64,000 nt of DNA from Methanobrevibacter sp. Its GTDB lineage: Archaea > Methanobacteriota > Methanobacteria > Methanobacteriales > Methanobacteriaceae. A program made the position numbers and the translations under genes. Numbering within the stretch: the first letter of the stretch is position 1; each line of letters starts with the position of its first letter. This document shows positions 1-52,961 of this stretch, piece by piece. The stretch lies in NCBI RefSeq assembly GCF_015062935.1, contig NZ_SUTM01000011.1, forward strand, positions 1-64,000, written 5' to 3'. The notes below the pieces were generated by a model. That model saw only the letters and a program-made list of their open reading frames with translations, did no database searches and was not told where the DNA came from.

Positions 1-2
1 AT

Positions 3-743
3 TTACACCGTATGATAAACAAGGCGGCTTCTGGTGAACCAGTCGCTTATGGTGTTTGGTGTGGTGTTGCTGGTGCTATTGCATACATAGTTATGTCTTT
101 AGGTATGATGCCTTTAGTAGCTATTGCAATGGGTGCTTGTGTCGCTGCTTTTGTTCACGCTATTTATACTGTTACATCCCACATGGGAAGGATTGTTGGA
201 CAATCCCAATTTGAACAACCATTATTTATGGATGTATTGACTCAATCTTTAGGACCTATTGTAGGTCACGGATTTATAACTAGTTTTTGTATTGTCGGAA
301 TTTCTTACTTAATGACCATTCCATTAGGATTTAGTGATCCTTTACACGTATTCCCATTACCACTCTTAGCAATGCTTTGGGGTATTGCTTTAGGTGCTAT
401 CGGTTCTTCAACCGGGGACGTTCACTATGGTGCAGAAAGTGAGTATCAAAAATTCGAATTTGGTGGAGGTACCCCTGTAGCTATTCAAGGGGATATTGTT
501 ACTAAAGCTCCATTAGGTGCTAAAAACTCTATGGATGTAGTAAACTTCTGTGCTAAATTCGGTGGACCATTAACTGGTTTCTGTTTCGGTCTCGTTGTAT
601 TCTTTAGTTTCTGGAATACAGTAGTATTTGGAGTATATGGTGGTATTATTGTAGGTATTATAATAATTATCTTATTAATTATCATGGATAATTATTTAGA
701 AGTATTTGCAAGAAACAAATATGGACCATATGAGGAAGAATAA
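3..743 (+). CDS. mtrE: Tetrahydromethanopterin S-methyltransferase subunit E, 5'-truncated
   Basis: Membrane subunit of the Na+-translocating methyltransferase that moves the methyl group from methyl-H4MPT to coenzyme M. The reading frame is open to the left edge (Leu-His-Arg then Met-Ile-Asn-Lys), so the N-terminal part, roughly 50 residues by family length near 295, lies outside the window and the Met at base 12 is internal. Several hydrophobic segments, the stretch GSSTGDVHYGAE and the ending RNKYGPYEEE are typical of MtrE. It is the first visible gene of mtrEDCBAFGH, with mtrD starting 13 bases after its stop. Confidence 0.95.
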   Translation, partial: LHRMINKAASGEPVAYGVWCGVAGAIAYIVMSLGMMPLVAIAMGACVAAFVHAIYTVTSHMGRIVGQSQFEQPLFMDVLTQSLGPIVGHGFITSFCIVGISYLMTIPLGFSDPLHVFPLPLLAMLWGIALGAIGSSTGDVHYGAESEYQKFEFGGGTPVAIQGDIVTKAPLGAKNSMDVVNFCAKFGGPLTGFCFGLVVFFSFWNTVVFGVYGGIIVGIIIIILLIIMDNYLEVFARNKYGPYEEE

Positions 744-756
744 GGAGGTTTCGATT

Positions 757-1458
757 ATGGATCCAATTACTTTAATTTTATTCATCGCAATAGGCGGTAT
801 TATGATTGGTGCAGGTGTGCACTTTATTCCTGTAGGAGGAGCTCCTGCAGCTATGGCAACAGCTACTGGTGTAGGTACAGGTACTGCTATGTTAGCTGCT
901 GGTGCTGGTTTAACAGGTCTTATTACTGCTGCAACTATGACAGGTGAACCATTCTATATAGTAGGTATAGGTGGTGCTATTGGTGCTATGATCATGATGG
1001 GTATTACTATGCTCATTGCTAACTTAATCTACATCTTCGGTGTAGGTATTGTTCCTGCTGCATCAAAAGTACCTGTAGACTGGATTACCAAACGTAATCA
1101 AGAAGCATACAAAACCCCTGGTACTGAAGGTCACGGTGTACCATTAACTTCATTTGTAAGTGGTCTTATCGGAGGACTTCTTGGTGGTTTTGGTGGTGGA
1201 TTAGTCTACTACGGAATTTACAATGCTGTACAAGACAGTACTTTTGTAACTGACCCGGCTGTAAGTATCGGTTTAGCTGCTATTTTAGGTGTAGGTGTGT
1301 TCTTTATCAACTCTGTAATCGCTTCATACAACATCGGTGGTACCATCGAAGGTATGCACGATCCAAAATTCAAAAGAATTGGAACTGGAGCTATTGCATG
1401 TGCTATCGCATCTATCGTTGTCGGAATCTTTTGTATTATTTTAACTGGAGGTATTTAA
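757..1458 (+). CDS. mtrD: Tetrahydromethanopterin S-methyltransferase subunit D
   Basis: Integral membrane subunit of the Mtr complex, 233 residues. I chose the ATG at 757 (MDPITLILFIAIGG) because an excellent SD, AAGGAGGT at 742-749, precedes it at proper distance; the same frame stays open further upstream to 706, but that extension would overlap mtrE. The protein is almost wholly hydrophobic, with glycine/alanine-rich transmembrane segments. MtrE, MtrD and MtrC are the membrane core of the complex; which of them forms the sodium path cannot be told from this sequence. Confidence 0.95.
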   Translation: MDPITLILFIAIGGIMIGAGVHFIPVGGAPAAMATATGVGTGTAMLAAGAGLTGLITAATMTGEPFYIVGIGGAIGAMIMMGITMLIANLIYIFGVGIVPAASKVPVDWITKRNQEAYKTPGTEGHGVPLTSFVSGLIGGLLGGFGGGLVYYGIYNAVQDSTFVTDPAVSIGLAAILGVGVFFINSVIASYNIGGTIEGMHDPKFKRIGTGAIACAIASIVVGIFCIILTGGI

Positions 1459-1459
1459 A

Positions 1460-2272
1460 ATGTCTGCTGGTGGAAGTGCTGATGGTGCAGCTGCAGGTGC
1501 AGTAAGTTCAACAATGTTACTCGCTTTAGGTATTGTTGGAGGATTACTCGCAATTTATCTCACTGGATTTTTAGGCGACATGGGATCAGTTATTGCAGGT
1601 CTCGGTGCTGTTTGTGCTATCGTATGGGGATCAGACGCTATTCGTAGAGTAGCAAGTTACGGTTTAGGTACTGGTGTACCATCTATCGGTTACATGTCCT
1701 TATCCGTTGGTGTTATCTCTGCTTTAGCAGGTATCAGTCTAGCAACTATCTTAAAAATGGCTCTTATCGGACCAATCGCAGCTTTCGTAATTGCTGTTAT
1801 TATTGGTGCTATTATTGCATTAGTTGCTACTAAAATTGTAGGAATGAAAATACCTATTATGCTTCAATGTACCATTGAAATTGCTGGTGCAGCAACTTTA
1901 GCAGTTCTTGCATTCTCAGTTGCAATTGCAGGTTCTTACGATATGACTGCAATTTATGAAAATGTTGTAGCAACTGGTTTCATTGCTGTATTATTTATCT
2001 TATGTACTATGGCTATCCAACATCCATTCAACGCATGTTTAGGACCAAACGAAGATCAAGTAAGAACTTTAAAATGTGCAGCATCTACTGCATTCTTATC
2101 TATGACTTTAGTAGGTCTCATGTCTGTAACTTCAGGTGGATTAGGTTGGTTCATTGTATTCATCGTAGGTTTAATTGGTTGGATTATCTCATTCAGAGCT
2201 TTCGTATTAGCTTCAATGAACGATGCTGCTTCAACCAAATGGGCTGGATTATGGCCTAAAGTTGAAAATTAG
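1460..2272 (+). CDS. mtrC: Tetrahydromethanopterin S-methyltransferase subunit C
   Basis: Integral membrane subunit of the Mtr complex, 270 residues, with a short polar Ser/Gly/Ala-rich N-terminus followed by several long hydrophobic segments. The start lies one base after the mtrD stop; its SD (GGAGGT at about 1447-1452) is inside the end of mtrD, so the two are translationally coupled. The C-terminus (ASMNDAASTKWAGLWPKVEN) is polar. Gene order and composition leave little doubt about identity. Confidence 0.95.
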   Translation: MSAGGSADGAAAGAVSSTMLLALGIVGGLLAIYLTGFLGDMGSVIAGLGAVCAIVWGSDAIRRVASYGLGTGVPSIGYMSLSVGVISALAGISLATILKMALIGPIAAFVIAVIIGAIIALVATKIVGMKIPIMLQCTIEIAGAATLAVLAFSVAIAGSYDMTAIYENVVATGFIAVLFILCTMAIQHPFNACLGPNEDQVRTLKCAASTAFLSMTLVGLMSVTSGGLGWFIVFIVGLIGWIISFRAFVLASMNDAASTKWAGLWPKVEN

Positions 2273-2289
2273 ATTAGGAGGAATTAAAT

Positions 2290-2619
2290 ATGGCTCAAAT
2301 GTTACCTATGGTACAAATTGTACCTGAAATGAATTTCGCATATGACCCTGTCACAGGGCTTTTAAGTTCATCTTTAGGTTCAGGAATTGTTCTCCTATCT
2401 ATGGATGATGTAAACGAACAAGTAGCAAAAGTGGAATTAGCTGCTGATGAATTAATGGCTTCATTAGATCCATACACAAGTCCTGTTGGTTCCTACCCTG
2501 GAAGGGAAGGTTCTTACATTACTGCAGGATTATTAACTAACATGGTATACGGATTCTTATTAGCTACATTCATTATATTTGCTGCATTACCTATATTACA
2601 AGTATTGGGGGTTTTATAG
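2290..2619 (+). CDS. mtrB: Tetrahydromethanopterin S-methyltransferase subunit B
   Basis: Small Mtr subunit of 109 residues: a soluble N-terminal part of about 80 residues and one C-terminal transmembrane helix (residues about 83-107). A clear SD (AGGAGG, 2277-2282) precedes the ATG. The stop codon ends at 2619 and mtrA starts at 2620, so the junction is seamless. Length and topology match the family. Confidence 0.95.
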   Translation: MAQMLPMVQIVPEMNFAYDPVTGLLSSSLGSGIVLLSMDDVNEQVAKVELAADELMASLDPYTSPVGSYPGREGSYITAGLLTNMVYGFLLATFIIFAALPILQVLGVL

Positions 2620-3333
2620 ATGGCTGATAAAAAAGCTCCTGCAGACGGCTGGCCGGTTATCAGTGGAGACTACATTGTCGGTGATCCAGAAAGCCCAGTT
2701 GCAGTAACAACTTTAGCTTCTCACATTGAAGCTGAACTTTCTGGAGCAGCTATTGCAGGTCCATGTAAAACAGAAAACTTAGGAATAGAAAAAGTAGTTG
2801 CTAATATTATTTCCAACCCTAATATTCGTTTCTTAATATTAGCTGGTGCTGAAGTGCAAGGTCACATTACCGGTCAAAGTTTTAAAGCTTTACACGAAAA
2901 CGGTGCAGACCCTGACAAAAAGAAAATTATTGGAGCAACCGGTGCTATTCCTTTCGTAGAAAATGTTCCACTTGACGGTGTTGAAAGATTCCAACAACAA
3001 TTAGAAATTGTTGATTTAATCGACACAGAAGATATTGGAGCAATTCAATCAAAAATCAATGAATGTGTAGAAAAAGATCCAGGTGCTTTTGAAGAAGAAG
3101 CTATGGTCATTTCCGTTGATGATGACGGTGGTGAAGAAGAAGAAGGAGAAGCAGTAAAAGTTGTTTCTGCTGAAACTGCACTCATTGAAGCAAGAATTAG
3201 GGATATAAACACAAAAATCGACATGGTCGGTGCTGTCCAAAAAAATATGGCAGGTAATTATTCTGGTAAAGTACAAGGTATAATGATTGGATTAGCTTTT
3301 ACTTTAATAATTGGAGTTTTATTCTTGATTTAA
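2620..3333 (+). CDS. mtrA: Tetrahydromethanopterin S-methyltransferase subunit A (corrinoid protein)
   Basis: Corrinoid-carrying subunit of Mtr, 237 residues. The N-terminal domain (about 1-170) binds the cobamide whose cobalt is methylated by MtrH. His82, within [13 protein letters not shown], aligns by position with the cobalt-ligand histidine (His84) known in Methanothermobacter MtrA. An acidic linker (EEEEGE) and a single C-terminal transmembrane helix (about 216-237) anchor it to the membrane. It starts directly after the mtrB stop. The corrinoid biosynthesis gene cobY lies about 3 kb downstream. Confidence 0.96.
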
Positions 3334-3346
3334 GGAGGATATGAAT

Positions 3347-3553
3347 ATGGTACAAATTTCAAACAAACCAAATATTAATGGGATGAAAACTGCAGCAGAC
3401 GATGCTGAATACAGTTCAAAACTCCTTGCAAGAGAAGGTAAACTATTCGCAGGTTTACTTGCAACAAGATTTAAAGGTTTTGCTTATGGTGCTTGCATTG
3501 CATTACTTTTAATCGTAATTATTCCTTTTATTGCAAAAGCATTAGGATTCTAA
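3347..3553 (+). CDS. mtrF: Tetrahydromethanopterin S-methyltransferase subunit F
   Basis: Small Mtr subunit, 68 residues, with a soluble part and one C-terminal transmembrane helix (about 45-65). Two in-frame ATGs occur at 3341 and 3347; the SD AAGGAGG (3332-3338) is only two bases before the first but eight before the second, so I chose 3347 (MVQISNKPN). The length then equals the usual 68 residues. It sits in the standard order between mtrA and mtrG. Confidence 0.93.
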
Positions 3554-3566
3554 AGAGGTGTTATTT

Positions 3567-3806
3567 ATGAGTGAAGGAGATTCAATACCTCAAGTAATGG
3601 TTTCCTCAGATGATTTCAATCAAATTGTTGCAAAATTAGATGATGCAGAAGAAAAAGTTGATTTCACTGTTGGGGAATACTATCAACGTTTAGGCCAACA
3701 AAATGGTAGAGATGTTGGTATTTTATATGGTATTATAATTGGATTAATTATATTAATTGTAGCTATTAAATTCGGTATAGCTTCAATGTTATCTGCCTTA
3801 TTATAG
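3567..3806 (+). CDS. mtrG: Tetrahydromethanopterin S-methyltransferase subunit G
   Basis: Small Mtr subunit, 79 residues: an N-terminal soluble segment ([14 protein letters not shown]), a predicted helix and one C-terminal transmembrane helix (about 55-77). The ATG at 3567 is preceded by AGAGGTG (3554-3560). An in-frame GTG at 3558 is part of that SD and is unlikely to be the start. It is located between mtrF and mtrH, as in other methanogens. Confidence 0.93.
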
Positions 3807-3819
3807 GAGGTTTATATTT

Positions 3820-4752
3820 ATGTTAAGATTTGATAAAGAACAACTTGTCGTGGATATTGCTGGCGTAAAAATGGGAGGACAACCTGGTGAATACCCTACT
3901 GTTTTAGCTGGAACAATCTTTTACGGCGGACACAATATTATTAGTGATGAAAAAGAAGGTATCTTTGATAAAGATGCTGCTGAAGAAAGAGTTAAAACTA
4001 TGGAAGAAATGTCTGACGTTACCGGAAACCCTTGTGTTGTACAAACTTTCGGTGCTACTCCAGAAGCTATGGTAAAATACTTAGAATTTGTTGGAGACAT
4101 CTGTGACAAACCTTTCCTTATAGATTCAACTGCAGCTGCTGCTAAAATTGCAGGTGTAGAATATGTTCAAGAAGTTGGATTAACTGATAGAGCTGTTTAC
4201 AACTCTTTAAGTATGGCTGCAGAACCTGCTGAAATCGAAGCTGTTAAAAACTCTGATATCGACGCATCCATTCTCTTAGGTTTCAACCCAATGAAACCGG
4301 GTGTAGAAGGAAAAATCGAAATCTGGGAAACTGGTGGAGATGTAATCGATCAAGGTATTCTTGAAATGGCTGACGAATGTGGTATTACTAAACCATGGAT
4401 GGATGTAGCAGTTACTCCATTAGGTCAAGGTGCAGGACCTGCTGTAAGAACTTCTTACGCAGTTAAAGCTAAATGGGGATACCCAGTAGGATCTGGTATT
4501 CACAACGTACCATCCGCATGGGACTGGTTAAGAGGATACAAAAAAGAACACAAAGAAGCTTGGCCTGTTTGTGATATTGGTTCCAATATCGTTCAACAAA
4601 TGGCTGGTGGGGACTTTGTACTCTTCGGACCAATCGAAAACGCAAGACTTGCATTCCCTGCATGTGGTATGGCAGATATCATGATTGCTGAAGCAGCAAA
4701 AGATATCGGTACCGAACCTATTGAAGACCACCCAATTAACAACTTATTATAA
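3820..4752 (+). CDS. mtrH: Tetrahydromethanopterin S-methyltransferase subunit H
   Basis: Soluble catalytic subunit, 310 residues, predicted TIM barrel of the pterin methyltransferase type, which transfers the methyl group from methyl-H4MPT to the cob(I)amide of MtrA. Recognisable segments are MLRFDKEQLVVDIAG at the start and the conserved stretch WDVAVTP-like near residues 190-197 (here WMDVAVTPLGQGAGPA). SD AGGAGGT (3806-3812). It ends the operon; a strong hairpin with a T-run follows at 4767. Confidence 0.96.
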   Translation: MLRFDKEQLVVDIAGVKMGGQPGEYPTVLAGTIFYGGHNIISDEKEGIFDKDAAEERVKTMEEMSDVTGNPCVVQTFGATPEAMVKYLEFVGDICDKPFLIDSTAAAAKIAGVEYVQEVGLTDRAVYNSLSMAAEPAEIEAVKNSDIDASILLGFNPMKPGVEGKIEIWETGGDVIDQGILEMADECGITKPWMDVAVTPLGQGAGPAVRTSYAVKAKWGYPVGSGIHNVPSAWDWLRGYKKEHKEAWPVCDIGSNIVQQMAGGDFVLFGPIENARLAFPACGMADIMIAEAAKDIGTEPIEDHPINNLL

Positions 4753-4766
4753 ACACAAAGGGTCCC

Positions 4767-4803
4767 GATTAGATGATTCATTTCATCTAATCTTTTTTTT
4801 TTA
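4767..4803 (+). terminator. Hairpin terminator of the mtr operon
   Basis: A perfect 10-bp stem (GATTAGATGA at 4767-4776 with TCATCTAATC at 4783-4792), a 6-base loop, then a long T-run. It lies 14 bases after the mtrH stop. Confidence 0.85.
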
Positions 4804-4856
4804 AATTTTTTTCTATTTTTGAACTATTTATCGCACTTTTTTTCACGGATTTTTTT

Positions 4857-4871
4857 AAAAAAATTTATATT
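4857..4871 (+). promoter_or_regulatory. Archaeal promoter (BRE/TATA) for the marker-14 gene
   Basis: A-rich BRE-like stretch followed by TTTATATT, about 45-59 bases before the ATG at 4916; an SD (TGAGGT, about 4903-4908) lies between. The preceding hairpin terminator argues that this gene has its own promoter. Confidence 0.55.
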
Positions 4872-4915
4872 GCTATAAAAAGATATTATTACTTAATTAT
4901 AATTGAGGTTATAAA

Positions 4916-6385
4916 ATGTCTTTTTTAAGTAAAATTTTTAATAAAGGTCCCAAACCTATTATTGCTCATTCAAAAGAAGGTAATTTAGCTTCTTTAAGAG
5001 CTCAAAAGGCAGGTCCTGCAAGTCCAGGTGCTGTTCAAAAACCTGATACTTTTTATGTAACTGCTTCTGTAGAACTGGGAAACACTACCACAAAATGTAT
5101 TGTAATGGCAACTAACTTAAACACTAGTGAGTCTTATTTGCTTAATAAAACAGTTAAAATGACTCGTGATATTAGGCCGCCTAAACCATCTGAAGATGTA
5201 TTCGGTAAAACAGTTTGGGGTATTGAACTTTCTAAAGAAGCTGTAACTGAATTGATTAGGGATACAGTTTTAGAGGCTTTAAAGAAATGTCATGTTGATA
5301 AAGATGAAGATTTGGATTTCGTTGTTAGATCAACAGGTGTAACTGCTGGTTTTGCAACTGCAGAAGAAGCTGGTCAACTTATTATTGCACTTGCTGACGG
5401 ATGTCTTGAGGCGGATATTCCTCCTCGTAAAATGTCTCCTGCAATGAGTATTTCACAACTTCCTGAAAGATTGCAAAGACATTCCCTTTTGGAAAATATC
5501 ATGTTTGATGGAGCTGTTGTTAGTGTAGTTCCTCCTGAAGGAAAAGAAACTGTAGCAAATGAAATGGAAGGGGAGCTTGTTACTGCAGGAATTAAATTAG
5601 GTGCTAAATGGACTGAAGTTGATTACAGAAACCCTTGTGTGTCTCTGGATTTCGGTTCAACTTTGGCTGGACGTATTGTTAATGACAATGAACCATATGC
5701 TAACACTGTTGGAAACTTTTTAGGTCTGGCTGGTGTTGTAAGCGACTCTTTAGCTAGAGGTTCAGGTCAGATTGATAAGAAAAACGGTGCTGCTTTAGAT
5801 TTGTACTCTGAAAAAGCAATGAAAAAAGCTGACCATAAAAAAGCTGAAGCCAACGCTTTGGAAGCACATAAACTAATCAATATTACAAAAGTTCCGATGG
5901 ATGTTGAAAGATTCGGTACTGTTCCTGTAAATCCTGTAGCTGCTGAAAAAGCAGGTACCACTTTAATTGGGTGTGATGTAGGATTTAATGGGGATAAACT
6001 TCCTGAATTGATGGAATTGGGTGCACAGTTCTATGATGCTGACGGCCTTCCAACTTTACTTTCCACACTGGACTATGTAAGTACCAATATTGTTAAAAGG
6101 GTTTTGGATGTTGCATTTGCTGAAAATGTCATTGTTCCAGGTTCCGCTTTAGGTATTACTGGTAGGGCTGGTATAACTGGACGCAAACCGGAATTGATTT
6201 TAGAAGCCGTTCAGGATAAATTTGAAAATGTTGTATTTGTCGAAGACGGTCTTGCATTAGGTTCAGCAATTATGGCTCGTTGTATGAATTCAATGGGTAC
6301 TCCAAAAGTTCCTATTGGTGGTAAACAAGGTGGAAGATGCATCCTTAAAGACCGTATGAAAATGGCTGGCGGCAAATTCGCTTAA
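4916..6385 (+). CDS. Methanogenesis marker protein 14 (putative)
   Basis: 489-residue soluble protein. I recognise it as the family found in methanogens next to or near mtr and named methanogenesis marker 14 (TIGR03285); its biochemical role is unknown. Visible features include glycine-rich segments resembling ASKHA-type nucleotide-binding proteins: ASVELGNTTTKCIVMAT near residue 50, VSLDFGSTLAGRIVND near 245, and a C-terminal ITGRAGITGRKPELIL segment near 420. These suggest an actin/Hsp70-like ATPase fold. The gene follows mtrH behind a terminator and its own TATA box. Family naming is from memory, not a search. Confidence 0.7.
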   Translation: MSFLSKIFNKGPKPIIAHSKEGNLASLRAQKAGPASPGAVQKPDTFYVTASVELGNTTTKCIVMATNLNTSESYLLNKTVKMTRDIRPPKPSEDVFGKTVWGIELSKEAVTELIRDTVLEALKKCHVDKDEDLDFVVRSTGVTAGFATAEEAGQLIIALADGCLEADIPPRKMSPAMSISQLPERLQRHSLLENIMFDGAVVSVVPPEGKETVANEMEGELVTAGIKLGAKWTEVDYRNPCVSLDFGSTLAGRIVNDNEPYANTVGNFLGLAGVVSDSLARGSGQIDKKNGAALDLYSEKAMKKADHKKAEANALEAHKLINITKVPMDVERFGTVPVNPVAAEKAGTTLIGCDVGFNGDKLPELMELGAQFYDADGLPTLLSTLDYVSTNIVKRVLDVAFAENVIVPGSALGITGRAGITGRKPELILEAVQDKFENVVFVEDGLALGSAIMARCMNSMGTPKVPIGGKQGGRCILKDRMKMAGGKFA

Positions 6386-47996: not shown

Positions 47997-49706
47997 CTAT
48001 TCATCTTCAAAACCATCTTCAACTTCATCTTCTTCGAAGTTATCTAATGCGGATTGACCTTCTTCAACTGCGCGTCCGTATTCATCAACTTCTTCCATGA
48101 TAATTGCATCAAGTTCTTCTTCTTCCTCTTCTTCTTCAACTTTCTCACCAAGCAGTTCTGCAAGAGCTCTTTTTGTTACTTTTGCTAAAACTTCTTGATA
48201 TTCAGGAACTCCGGTTTCACCGAGTTTTGCAGCTTCTTCGATAATAACTGGAACGTATTCTTCAAATACTTTAGAACGTTTTTCTTTTTCTTTAGCTGCT
48301 CTTTTAGCTCTCAGGTGTTTTTGTAATTTACGGGCTAATTTCATTGTTGCCTGTCTGATTTCGTGAACAATTTCAGGTTCTGGTGAAACACTTTGTTTTC
48401 CTGTTGAAAGGTAAGGTACCTGAGTTGAAATAATATTTACAAATAATGTCAATGGGGTGTTGTCCATATCTTTTAGGCCGTAACGTTTCCAGTCAATACT
48501 TTTGAGGGCTTCTGTAATAGCACAGCTTCCTGCATCAAATGTTAACGGAACTCTGTTAGCAAATCTCATAATTTCAGATTTTCTTTTCTCATTGACAACT
48601 CTTCCTGCATCTCCTCCGTATGCAAGTCCTGCTTCAATAATGAATGAAACACCTCCTGCATAGGTTACAGGTTTTCTGGTAATTGTGGTTACGAATTCAG
48701 GTTTAAGAATCTGTTTCATACCTTTTTCAATCTGTTCGGATCCGATTGGTATAAGTCCGTCTGTTGGAGGAGCCATGAATTTCATTTTCTTAAAGCAGTG
48801 CACGATAGCTTCCGCTTCAGGGAATGTCATAGCTTTAGGACGTTTATTCATATCAATGCCGGTGAGTTCAGCAATTTCATCAACTCTTTTGTTGGACATT
48901 CTTGACATTGATGAGGTTAACATACTTTTATATCTTCTACTGTCGGTATTTTGTGCCATTGTCATTAAGTCATCAGCACTTACACCTTTAGGGTGAGGTA
49001 ATACTTCTTTTGGTTGTACTGGGACAACATTCGCTGCTCTTTTGAAAATATATTTGTGTCCTGATGGGTCTCTGAATGTGATTTTTGCGTGAGGGTTTCC
49101 AATCATGGTTCTTCTGATGTATTCGAAAGCACCCTGCTCTGCAAGTGAGTATGATACTTCTTTGAATTGTAATTCAATGCATACTCCAGTACTTTCGGCA
49201 GGATAATCTTCTCTTTCCATTAAAATTCCCCGGTTGTTTTTAACATCCATCTGGAATTTCATTTTCACTCCTTTAATTTCATCCCCGTCTTTGTAGCATG
49301 AAATTACGCGTGCAGGTTTACCGGTAGTCATCTGTGATAAAAGCACACAACCACTACATCCTAAACCTTGTTGTCCTCTTGATTGGATGTTTCTGAATTT
49401 GGATCCTGCAAACATCATACAGTATACCTGCATTACATAGTCTTCAGGAATTCCAGGTCCATTATCCTTGTGTCTTAAAATGTAATGTTCTTTATCAACA
49501 CGCTTTAATTCTATATCAATATCAGGCAATATTCCTGCTTCTTCAGCTGCGTCAAAACTATTTGTAATCAGTTCGTGGAAAACAATAGTTAAAGAACGAA
49601 TTTTACCTGTGAATCCAAGCATCTGTTTATTTTTTCTGAAGAACTCAGATGGGGTCAATCTCTGAAAGTCCTCTTCCCAGTCAAGTCCTACTTGTTCTTG
49701 AGCCAA
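47997..49706 (-). CDS. top6B: DNA topoisomerase VI subunit B
   Basis: 569-residue GHKL ATPase subunit. ATP-site motifs [14 protein letters not shown] (about residues 46-59), [14 protein letters not shown] and [17 protein letters not shown] (about 107) are clear; an acidic C-terminal tail ([18 protein letters not shown]) follows the transducer domain. Translation starts at TTG (49706), supported by a strong SD, AGGAGG, about 10 bases upstream. First of the top6B-top6A pair; a 417-base gene-free region lies upstream. Confidence 0.95.
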
Positions 49707-50123
49707 AATTTTTCCTCCTAATAATTAAGTATGTTTTAGTTATTATCCTGACTATATTTAAATGAAATGAGAGAGCATTTGAAAAGTAATATTTATACCC
49801 TACCCTATCTAAGTCGATTAAATATATGGTAAAATAATAATTTAAAAACATGTAGAAAATATAGTATTTACACTATGCTATCTATATATGTTGGTTGAAG
49901 TATATAATAGTTTGCTATTAATTCCATAATTTTTATAGCAATCTTTTATTAAAATTGTTTCAGATATGTAATATTTATTTGATTCTGTTTTTAGAGGTTT
50001 ATGGAGTTTATTTTTTAAAATAAATAAAAAGTTGTATGGCTTTATAATATTGTAATTACTCAGTAAAATTGTTTTTATTTGAAACTGACTAGTTTAAATA
50101 ATTTTAATAATAAATTAAAAGTC
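49707..50123. other. 417-base gene-free region between divergent top6B and the JAMM-like module
   Basis: AT-rich, no credible ORF. Minus-strand CATTTAAATATAGTC near 49752-49766 may be the top6B TATA box. A small hairpin-like ATAGT/ACTAT (about 49862-49877) and short CCTA repeats (ACCCTACCCTATC near 49797-49809) are present but weak. An in-frame TTG at 50079 extends the next ORF but has no SD. Confidence 0.4.
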
Positions 50124-50861
50124 ATGATTTCAAAAAATAGTATTAACAATATTGTCCGCAAACTTCACCTTGATGAGTTCATAGAATCGCATAAGAGACT
50201 TCTTAGAGATAATCGCGGTGGATTTTTGATTCCTTTTGAAGTTAAAATAACTGACAAGGAATATGAAAGATACAGGCATCTTCCAATTGACTGGTCACTT
50301 TCGCCGATAACTAAAGATGACCTGCCTGCTGAATTTTCGGATAAGGCTGTAAAAACTGTTGACATGTTCAGAAAGAAAACTCATGACTTGGATGTGGAAT
50401 GCATGATCTATTTTGACATTGAAACTGGAAACATTGTTTCATGTAATTTTGCAGATGATGGCTCTCCTGACCATGTAAGTGGGACAATATATCCAAATTT
50501 TCTCAAAGGAATGCATATTGCGTCTGCTCATAATCATCCAAGAAAATATGGCTCTCCTCCTTCGGGCAAAAATTTTGAAATGTTGCAGTATGATTTTGAA
50601 GAATTTGAAATTGTATTGTCTCAAAGGGAATTATGGGTTTTAGAATCAAAAACAGAGGTTTTTGATGAGTCCTTTATTAATGAAATTCGTAAAGATTTGG
50701 ATGAAGGTTTACAAGCTATTTTGGATGAAATTTGTGAAGATTTGGATGAAGGTTATCTTGTATTGGATAATCTTAATGAGAAATATGGTAATTTTTTGTT
50801 AGGTTATTTAAATAATAGATTGGATAATATTAAACTAACTAGGAGGTATTTGGATGCATGA
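50124..50861 (+). CDS. JAMM/MPN-like (JAB) metalloprotease domain protein, unknown function
   Basis: 245-residue protein. HIASAHNHPRKYGSPPSGKN (residues 131-150) has the JAMM pattern H-x-H-P...S-x2-(D/N), with Asn150 where Asp is usual; Glu92 (VECMIYFDIE) could be the catalytic acid, the strand before resembles RadC/JAB folds. The N-terminal 80 residues are unfamiliar. Residues about 190-210 contain a 15-residue tandem repeat (DLDEG twice). It overlaps the next small gene by eight bases and lies opposite in strand to a conserved cluster, suggesting an inserted accessory module. A degenerate, inactive JAMM is possible. Confidence 0.6.
   Translation: MISKNSINNIVRKLHLDEFIESHKRLLRDNRGGFLIPFEVKITDKEYERYRHLPIDWSLSPITKDDLPAEFSDKAVKTVDMFRKKTHDLDVECMIYFDIETGNIVSCNFADDGSPDHVSGTIYPNFLKGMHIASAHNHPRKYGSPPSGKNFEMLQYDFEEFEIVLSQRELWVLESKTEVFDESFINEIRKDLDEGLQAILDEICEDLDEGYLVLDNLNEKYGNFLLGYLNNRLDNIKLTRRYLDA
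50692..50754. repeat. 45-base tandem repeat within the JAMM-like gene
   Basis: The 18-base string AAGATTTGGATGAAGGTT occurs at 50692 and again at 50737, exactly 45 bases (15 codons) apart; the segment between is a diverged copy, encoding two DLDEG units. Confidence 0.65.
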
Positions 50862-51075
50862 TTATTATCAAGGTGAAAAAAAAGTAATAGTTACTAAAGA
50901 TGTTGGTTTTAATAAATCAGAACTTATTTCACCAGAAAATCGTCAAAAATCTCGAGAAAGAATGAATAATCCAAATATAGTTTCTGGAAAATACAAATTA
51001 AAAGAGATTTTTGCTGATATTGGCATTACAGTCATTCCCGAAAAAATGACTTTTTGGTATCGGTTCACAGAATAA
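50854..51075 (+). CDS. Small protein of unknown function, partner of JAMM-like gene
   Basis: 73-residue soluble, basic protein with no recognised domain: MHDYYQGEKKVIVTKDVG followed by a charged helix (ISPENRQKSRERMNN) and a C-terminal strand-rich end (GITVIPEKMTFWYRFTE). Its ATG overlaps the end of the JAMM-like gene by eight bases, with SD AGGAGGT inside that gene, so translation is coupled and both proteins probably work together. Confidence 0.7.
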   Translation: MHDYYQGEKKVIVTKDVGFNKSELISPENRQKSRERMNNPNIVSGKYKLKEIFADIGITVIPEKMTFWYRFTE

Positions 51076-51105: not shown

Positions 51106-51723
51106 CTAATAATCTTTTTCATCAAAGTCGATGCCGTCCTTGAATTCAATTTTATCGTCTTCAATTCCAACGAGGTCTTTGAATTCTTTCATTTTTAAAG
51201 TTTCTTTTTTATGTTCTAAAAATCCATAGACAGATTTGTGTCTGGATCCGTTCAAAATCATTTCAATGGCTTCTTTTGCAATCATTATATTGTCCATTTC
51301 ACCGATTAGAGAAACAGTTTTGCCATAAACTGCCATGTCCACTTCAGCCATTTCCATAATTATTTCGCGTGTTTTCCCGTCTTTTCCAATAATTCTGCCT
51401 TTATGTCTTGCAAGGGCTTTTTTGGATTTTCCAATGTATAATGGTAAGCTGATAACCTCTAAATAAATATCATCACTGACAAGTTTTAAAGCAACTTCAG
51501 GATTGAATCCGCGAGCTACTGCCTTAACAATATGATTTGCATTCCAGACACCTAAAGGGTCTTCCATATCTTCTCTAGGTGTAATGTAAACAGTACCGTC
51601 ATCGCTGTCTATATCCAGCAGTGTTCCTGTTGCTTTTTCAATTGATTTTTTTACATTACCGTTGCTTCCGATTAAAGCCCCAACTCTGTTTTGAGGTATT
51701 TTTAAATAATCTGTTTCCGGCAT
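51106..51723 (-). CDS. KH-domain RNA-binding protein (Pno1/Dim2-like)
   Basis: 205-residue protein with two KH domains: YLKIPQNRVGALIGSNGNVKKSIE (residues 5-28, GxxG loop IGSNG) and LARHKGRIIGKDGKTREIIMEM near 103-124 (GKDG). It belongs to the universal archaeal KH family (arCOG04150, TIGR03665), related to eukaryotic Pno1/Dim2 in small-subunit ribosome assembly. SD AAGGTGATA precedes the ATG. RIO1 and aIF1A genes lie upstream on the same strand. Confidence 0.9.
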   Translation of the reverse strand: MPETDYLKIPQNRVGALIGSNGNVKKSIEKATGTLLDIDSDDGTVYITPREDMEDPLGVWNANHIVKAVARGFNPEVALKLVSDDIYLEVISLPLYIGKSKKALARHKGRIIGKDGKTREIIMEMAEVDMAVYGKTVSLIGEMDNIMIAKEAIEMILNGSRHKSVYGFLEHKKETLKMKEFKDLVGIEDDKIEFKDGIDFDEKDY

Positions 51724-52019: not shown

Positions 52020-52961
52020 TTAGGATTGATATTTTCTGAAGGCATATGCAAGAATTGATCCTGCAAAATTCTGCAGGACTGAATAAAGCGCTCCTGGAAC
52101 TGTTGCCTGAGATAAGTTTGGAAAATGGGTTTTTGCAAGACTGGTTGACAAACCTGAATTCTGAAATGCCAGTTCGATAGCTACTGTAATTATCTGTTTT
52201 CTGTCCATTCCTGCAAGGCGGCCAATTCCAAATCCGATTAACATTGCAAGGGCATATTGTAGGATAATGACAATGAGTATTATAGCGGATGAGGTTAAGA
52301 TAGCTTGTTTATTGGCTCCAATTACTCCTGCAACGATTAAACAGATTACAATTGATGATGCAGTAGGCAAATATTTTTTTAATTTTTCACAAAAATCAGG
52401 GAATTTGTAATTCAGGATTAAACCTAAAATAATTGGAACAATCACTATTTGAACAATTGAAATGAACATGTCTACTGGATTGAAATGAATTTGATTGCCT
52501 ATTAACAATAATGTGATTATTGGAGTTAGTATAGGAGAAATTACAGTAGAAACTGCAGTCAAAGAAACTGACAGTGCCACATCTCCCTTTGCAAGAAAAG
52601 TAATGACGTCAGATGCGGTTCCTCCAGGAACTGTTCCAACAAGAATGAGTCCGACTGTCAAGGCGGTATCAAGTGAAAATGCCCTTGCAAGAGCAAATGC
52701 TATAAGTGGCATTACGATATATTGCGCTGAAATTCCAACTCCAATTGCCTTAGGATTTTTTAACACATTAATGAAGTCATCTGTTTTCAATGTGGTTCCC
52801 ATTGTAAAAAGAACAACACTTAAAAGTAAATTAAGAATATTGATGCCATTATATTCGCTTAAAACCCATTTGAATGAATTCGGATAAACTAAAGAAATAG
52901 CTACTGCCACCAATATTATTATAAAAAAATATTTTTCAATAATGTTAAAAATCCCTTTCAT
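52020..52961 (-). CDS. Bile acid:sodium symporter family transporter
   Basis: 313-residue polytopic membrane protein of the BASS family, about ten hydrophobic helices. Characteristic segments are LVGTVPGGTASDVITFLAKG (about residues 105-124) with the sodium-site glycine/threonine pattern, and ELAFQNSGLSTSLAKTHF (about 267-284). The substrate may be an organic anion; bile acids themselves are not implied. It lies between rio1 and the KH-protein gene on the same strand, where other archaea do not carry it to my knowledge. Confidence 0.88.
   Translation of the reverse strand: MKGIFNIIEKYFFIIILVAVAISLVYPNSFKWVLSEYNGINILNLLLSVVLFTMGTTLKTDDFINVLKNPKAIGVGISAQYIVMPLIAFALARAFSLDTALTVGLILVGTVPGGTASDVITFLAKGDVALSVSLTAVSTVISPILTPIITLLLIGNQIHFNPVDMFISIVQIVIVPIILGLILNYKFPDFCEKLKKYLPTASSIVICLIVAGVIGANKQAILTSSAIILIVIILQYALAMLIGFGIGRLAGMDRKQIITVAIELAFQNSGLSTSLAKTHFPNLSQATVPGALYSVLQNFAGSILAYAFRKYQS

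What the first reader, a model, noticed from the sequence alone, without database searches (positions are those of the whole stretch)
50124..51075. Two-gene JAMM-like module inserted against a conserved cluster
A 245-residue JAMM-like protein (His136-x-His138-Pro, Ser147, Asn150) overlaps a 73-residue unknown protein by eight bases. The pair is on the plus strand between the KH-protein gene and top6B, which together with RIO1, aIF1A and gap form a run on the minus strand that I recall as adjacent in other Methanobacteriales. A JAMM protein with a tightly coupled tiny partner can be a ubiquitin-like deconjugation pair, a toxin/immunity pair or a defence module. This is the best candidate for an undescribed system here.
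Basis: partly seen in the sequence, partly recalled or inferred. Interest (0 to 1): 0.6.

Follow-up and report, generated by a model that had tools for sequence, protein, structure and literature searches.

The report
JAMM-like enzyme with obligate small partner
A two-gene unit in gut methanogens (Methanobrevibacter) pairs a JAMM-like metalloenzyme, related to toxin-like tails on head proteins of archaeal viruses, with a small protein that never leaves its side, so it is probably a toxin-and-antidote pair kept on the host chromosome, a family that the protein libraries searched here do not contain.

Summary
J (245 aa, 50124-50861) and P (73 aa, 50854-51075) are real genes, overlap by 8 bp, and sit between top6B and a KH gene; most relatives have an empty site there. 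Neither matches Pfam, PHROGs, NCBIfam or PADLOC. J belongs to a multi-copy family in Methanobrevibacter (37 of 139 family genomes, up to 7 hits each). All 53 aligned chromosomal copies keep Glu92, His136 and Ser147; 51 keep His138; 52 have Asn where JAMM enzymes have a metal-binding Asp. A P gene follows every readable unfused J directly (45 of 46 in the scripted test, against 9% of control genes), and seven copies are single-ORF J-P fusions. Each of four recurrent chromosomal sites holds one clade of J, with repeated decay. J's nearest outside relatives are C-terminal domains of provirus MuF head proteins beside portal and terminase genes, mostly with the canonical Asp. Best reading: a toxin/antitoxin-like pair related to the toxin cassettes of archaeal-virus MuF proteins. 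The JAMM fold rests on motif geometry and profile links; AlphaFold failed on a three-sequence alignment. The ubiquitin-deconjugation reading is disfavoured. Toxicity, neutralisation and target are untested.

The parts
50124..50861 (+). J: JAMM-like protein, 245 aa; Glu92, His136-x-His138-Pro, Ser147-x-x-Asn150
50854..51075 (+). P: obligate small partner, 73 aa, overlaps J by 8 bp, own Shine-Dalgarno (AGGAGGT) just upstream
49990..51073 (.). approximate module block missing from empty-site relatives; sequence outside these ends aligns to them
47997..49706 (-). left flank, top6B (conserved neighbour, not part of the module)
51106..51723 (-). right flank, KH-domain protein (conserved neighbour, not part of the module)

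Best explanation
J/P is a toxin/antitoxin-like (effector/immunity) pair. J is a JAMM-superfamily metal-dependent hydrolase related to the C-terminal effector domains that archaeal head-tailed viruses carry on MuF head proteins; P is its cognate inhibitor. Shown: homology of J to MuF C-terminal domains; invariant Glu, first His and Ser, and a near-invariant second His; obligate linkage or fusion to P; purifying selection on both; one clade of J per recurrent chromosomal site, with repeated decay. Inferred: that J is catalytic and harmful, that P neutralises it by binding, and that the pair now acts as a chromosomal addiction or anti-virus unit (or that P protects against MuF-JAMM toxins brought in by viruses). 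The substrate is unknown; by analogy with Tox-JAB and RadC domains (PMC3482391) it may be nucleic acid rather than a ubiquitin-like protein. The Asp-to-Asn change at a metal ligand may weaken or alter catalysis.
For: J-family profile matches provirus MuF proteins: hhalign of J against an alignment of MuF-linked domains only, probability 98.5, E 3e-15, 145 columns; unrelated control 0.2. MuF relatives lie beside portal and terminase genes (L186, L187, L188), and a close relative of the L188 protein lies in an IMG/VR viral contig with terminase, portal and small downstream ORFs. P adjacency 45/46 against 41/480 controls; seven fusions, all keeping an internal Met at P's start, with 4-6 changes of fusion state on the tree. 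P survives where J is deleted (G049) or broken (G054). Extra P copies in some loci. Sites A-D each one clade with strong support. P evolves faster than J. Three copies lie near a type IV restriction enzyme. Weak hits of single members to Toxin-JAB1, Prok-JAB, RadC and DUF4329.
Against: No toxicity or neutralisation data. AlphaFold models of J and P are unusable (pLDDT 42 and 43) and the fold search of J gave nothing. The direct profile link to canonical JAMM is modest (74.5%, 39 columns). Asn replaces the metal-ligand Asp in 52 of 53 copies, and L063 and L085 have lost His138, so some or all copies may be catalytically dead. P is not detectably related to the partner of the G122/G124 JAMM genes. 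P being fused in cis is unusual for an antitoxin. Survival of P without J is only weakly informative because J is three times longer. Virion delivery of the MuF domains is inferred, not shown.
Confidence: 0.52

Rival explanations
1. Resident immunity or decoy locus: J is catalytically weak or dead (Asp to Asn), and the pair, chiefly P, persists to protect the host against MuF-JAMM toxins of incoming viruses.
For: Asn in 52 of 53 copies, second His lost in two; P kept where J is gone; extra P copies; proviruses of the same genus carry MuF-JAMM domains.
Against: Glu92, His136, Ser147 and Asn150 are nearly fixed and J is under purifying selection; P resembles no virus-side partner tested.
Confidence: 0.2
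2. Defence module (abortive infection): J is an effector released from P when a virus infects.
For: Accessory, multi-copy and patchy; near type IV restriction genes in L090, L094 and L108 and near an AAA/PD-(D/E)XK pair in L091.
Against: No PADLOC match for J or P; sites A-D lie among housekeeping genes.
Confidence: 0.15
3. JAMM deconjugase or processing protease whose substrate or adaptor is P (ubiquitin-like pair).
For: JAMM-like motif and obligate small partner.
Against: P C-termini are not conserved and carry no di-glycine motif; P is a fusion tail in seven copies; a separate canonical Prok-JAB protein exists in the genome.
Confidence: 0.06
4. A two-subunit enzyme of ordinary metabolism; P is a structural subunit.
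For: Obligate linkage and repeated fusion.
Against: Absent from most genomes, multi-copy and decaying; homology to viral MuF domains.
Confidence: 0.07

Closest known systems
MuF polymorphic toxins of temperate phages (Jamet et al. 2017, PMC5576092)
   Same: J is homologous to C-terminal domains of MuF proteins in Methanobacteriaceae proviruses; a small gene lies downstream in several of those loci; C-terminal domains vary between related MuF proteins.
   Different: J stands alone with no MuF domain, sits among chromosomal housekeeping genes, and has Asn for Asp; a word search of that paper found no mention of JAB or archaea.
[quoted passage not shown] 2012, PMC3482391; Pfam Toxin-JAB1, DUF4329)
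   Same: E...HxH...S...D-type pattern in a toxin domain with a neighbouring immunity gene; predicted nucleases.
   Different: No significant profile match (best E 0.014, 2 of 26 members); the listed clades are bacterial, eukaryotic or viral and sit behind export or RHS domains; partner differs.
Canonical prokaryotic JAMM (Prok-JAB PF14464; archaeal JAMM1/SAMP systems)
   Same: Glu, HxHP and Ser positions, with a profile link of 74.5% over 39 columns.
   Different: One residue longer between HxH and Ser, Asp replaced by Asn, below all Pfam cut-offs; the genome has its own separate Prok-JAB protein.
Type II toxin-antitoxin operons
   Same: Two overlapping genes, small partner, patchy multi-copy distribution.
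   Different: Toxin gene comes first; P shows no recognised DNA-binding domain; natural fusions.

Membership tests
JAMM/MPN+ metalloenzyme | Glu, H-x-H, Ser-x-x-Asp active-site pattern | tested here: inconclusive
   Glu92, His136 and Ser147 in 53/53, His138 in 51/53, but Asn instead of Asp in 52/53; Asp in most provirus relatives.
JAMM/MPN+ metalloenzyme | JAB/MPN fold or profile match | tested here: inconclusive
   hhalign 74.5% to Prok-JAB; below Pfam cut-offs; AlphaFold pLDDT 42, uninformative.
JAMM/MPN+ metalloenzyme | Zinc-dependent hydrolysis | not testable with these tools
   Needs purified protein.
MuF polymorphic toxin | N-terminal MuF domain in the same protein | tested here: not met
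   J has no Phage_Mu_F match; relatives L187 and L188 do. J is therefore not filed as a MuF toxin.
MuF polymorphic toxin | C-terminal domain homologous to MuF effector domains | tested here: met
   hhalign 98.5%, E 3e-15.
Toxin/immunity or toxin-antitoxin pair | Obligate adjacent small partner | tested here: met
   45/46 against 41/480 controls; seven fusions.
Toxin/immunity or toxin-antitoxin pair | Toxicity of J alone and rescue by P | not testable with these tools
   Needs expression assay.
Ubiquitin-like deconjugation pair | Partner is beta-grasp with a conserved C-terminal Gly-Gly | tested here: not met
   No di-glycine C-terminus in any P aligned; the P model is too weak to judge fold.
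Known defence system | Match to a PADLOC model | tested here: not met
   No hit for J or P.

The most novel reading that the evidence does not exclude
A new archaeal toxin-antitoxin family in which a JAMM-fold effector, taken from the MuF-borne toxins of archaeal viruses and re-tuned by an Asp-to-Asn change at the metal site, is held by a small cognate antitoxin and kept on host chromosomes as an anti-virus or addiction unit, with repeated in-cis fusion of toxin and antitoxin.
Probability: 0.35. Interest if true: 0.68.

Novelty: new variant of a known kind. Interest (0 to 1): 0.52.

Why it matters
Gut methanogens have few described toxin or virus-conflict systems (my own knowledge, not a survey made here). 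This links a chromosomal two-gene family of unknown function to effector domains on archaeal-virus head proteins, and suggests that MuF-type toxin arming reaches archaeal viruses and that hosts keep their own copies. It gives a direct bench test: toxicity of J, rescue by P, metal dependence, and the role of Asn150.

Tried and rejected
Pfam, PHROGs, NCBIfam, PADLOC and PDB sequence searches with J and P gave nothing significant. J was not found in viral contigs or phage records; only the L188 MuF domain was, and three further viral scans with other relatives were empty. Homology of P to the G122/G124 partner: not detected. Homology among P of sites A, B and C: suggestive only (5-59%); A against the site-D/fused clade is firm (97.7%). 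The Shine-Dalgarno asymmetry (P yes, J no) was considered as evidence of antitoxin excess and set aside, since a leaderless first gene would give the same pattern. The idea that the pair is recently mobile was rejected for sites A-D by the tree. An ADP-ribosyltransferase tail on the L188 MuF protein looked likely by eye but had no Pfam support.

Full report
Observation. J (50124-50861, +, 245 aa) and P (50854-51075, +, 73 aa) are intact, overlap by 8 bp and lie divergently from top6B (47997-49706, -) and convergently with a KH-protein gene (51106-51723, -). The proposed active-site residues are at the stated positions. No library searched contains either protein: best matches in Pfam, PHROGs, NCBIfam and PADLOC are noise.

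Distribution. One or more J homologues occur in 37 of 139 genomes of the family, in 2 of 17 genera by single-sequence search and 3 of 20 by profile, up to 7 hits per genome in the single-sequence search. The genus is Methanobrevibacter by the record titles of L060 and L061. P relatives occur in 21 of 67 genus genomes at E <= 0.1. At the top6B-KH junction 53 genomes could be measured: 37 have a gap of 289-507 bp (median 336), eight including the window about 1.4 kb, and the rest are intermediate or hold other DNA. Alignment of the gaps shows the block from about 49990 to 51073 absent from empty-site relatives, and partial remnants: G049 keeps P without J, G075 keeps the J N-terminus joined to the P C-terminus, G081 keeps a piece of P, G054 has a broken J and intact P. 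So the pair is accessory and decays repeatedly.

Obligate pair. In 53 aligned J copies (180 aa or more), 45 are followed by a small same-strand ORF at -23 to +33 bp, seven are single-ORF fusions and one runs off its contig. In a scripted test 45 of 46 J copies had such an ORF against 41 of 480 control genes in the same loci; the length range of that test lets in one fused copy. In all seven fusions a Met is kept at the P start with GGAG upstream, so P might still be made alone; the GGAG also encodes conserved residues, so this is only suggestive. P has a Shine-Dalgarno-like match of at least 4 bases in 44 of 45 loci and J in 5 of 45. P of site A and of the site-D/fused clade are homologous (97.7%); P at sites B and C is linked weakly, so common descent of all P is not shown.

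Selection and history. Pairwise pN/pS among eight site-A orthologues is 0.21-0.51 for J and 0.19-0.63 for P, P usually the higher. On the J tree each of the four recurrent sites is one clade: A (top6B/KH) 100/100, B (before rpl15e) 98/95, C (near hemL and aspS) 100/99, D (between an O-acetylhomoserine-type gene and an aldo/keto-type gene) 100/98; fusion state needs 4-6 changes. Site names B-D rest on my reading of neighbour sequences, not on a database search.

What J is. Glu92, His136 and Ser147 are invariant in 53 copies, His138 in 51, and Asn150 in 52 with one Asp. The JAMM motif is E-Xn-H(S/T)H-X7-SXXD, with the His and Asp residues coordinating zinc (PMC300881, abstract); J has one more residue between HxH and Ser, and Asn for Asp. 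Profile and single-sequence searches led from J to nine relatives in the family. Among them L186, both L187 proteins and L188 are C-terminal parts of MuF-type head proteins: L187 and L188 by Pfam (E 1.9e-14 to 4.5e-12), L186 by position beside a portal gene and by similarity to L118, which matches a head-morphogenesis PHROG. hhalign of J against MuF-linked domains only: 98.5%, E 3e-15; against unrelated P: 0.2. These relatives mostly carry Asp at the ligand position. Against canonical Prok-JAB: 74.5% over 39 columns, and the PDB search placed JAMM1 chains (5lda, 5ld9) at E 0.69-0.82, not significant. The L188 domain has an 83% identical counterpart in two IMG/VR contigs; in one that I read, what look like terminase and portal genes lie upstream and two small ORFs downstream. 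MuF proteins of related viruses share the N-terminal part only (vir080), as expected of a polymorphic family.

Mechanism. I favour a toxin/antitoxin-like pair: an effector domain of the kind viruses carry, paired with a cognate inhibitor. The steps from homology to toxicity, neutralisation and present role are inferred. Literature support for the kind: MuF toxins with small downstream immunity ORFs (PMC5576092) and JAB domains as toxin domains, predicted nucleases (PMC3482391). Three J/P copies (L090, L094, L108) lie within a few kb of a type IV restriction enzyme (only the L090 enzyme was scanned, the others are its family members), which fits a conflict role but is few cases. Asn150 and the two His138 losses leave open that many copies are weak or dead.

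Limits. AlphaFold was given only three sequences and failed for both proteins. Genomes are mostly drafts, so some absences may be assembly gaps. J start codons outside site A were chosen by rule. P at divergent sites is defined partly by position.

Noticed in passing
L118 (G124:C69) 1-5388: Cassette-like array in a relative genus: about seven copies of a 37-bp repeat holding inverted arms TTCGTTA-N12-TAACGAA separate short ORFs, including the end of a MuF protein with a JAMM-like domain and a separate JAMM domain with its small partner; could be a recombinase-shuffled toxin cassette store.
   Followed up: partly
L187 6822-8363 and 14855-16402: Two MuF proteins in one provirus region with similar N-terminal parts and different JAMM-like C-terminal domains.
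   Followed up: partly
L188 5482-8943; L232 2978-6403: MuF proteins of 1154 and 1141 aa with a JAMM-like domain and a C-terminal region that looks like an ADP-ribosyltransferase by eye, without Pfam support.
   Followed up: partly
window 52020-52961: SBF-family (bile-acid symporter-like) transporter gene lies between the KH gene and RIO1 on the minus strand.
   Followed up: no
L225 (G083:C10 3600-5740): The same top6B-KH junction is filled by about 2 kb that reads like a transposase gene.
   Followed up: no
L120 7872-8138 (G000:C23): A decayed second J/P copy in the window's own genome at site D.
   Followed up: partly
L104 7705-9782 and L094 7981-9666: Tandem J/P copies, one pair (L104) mixing a fused and an unfused form.
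   Followed up: no
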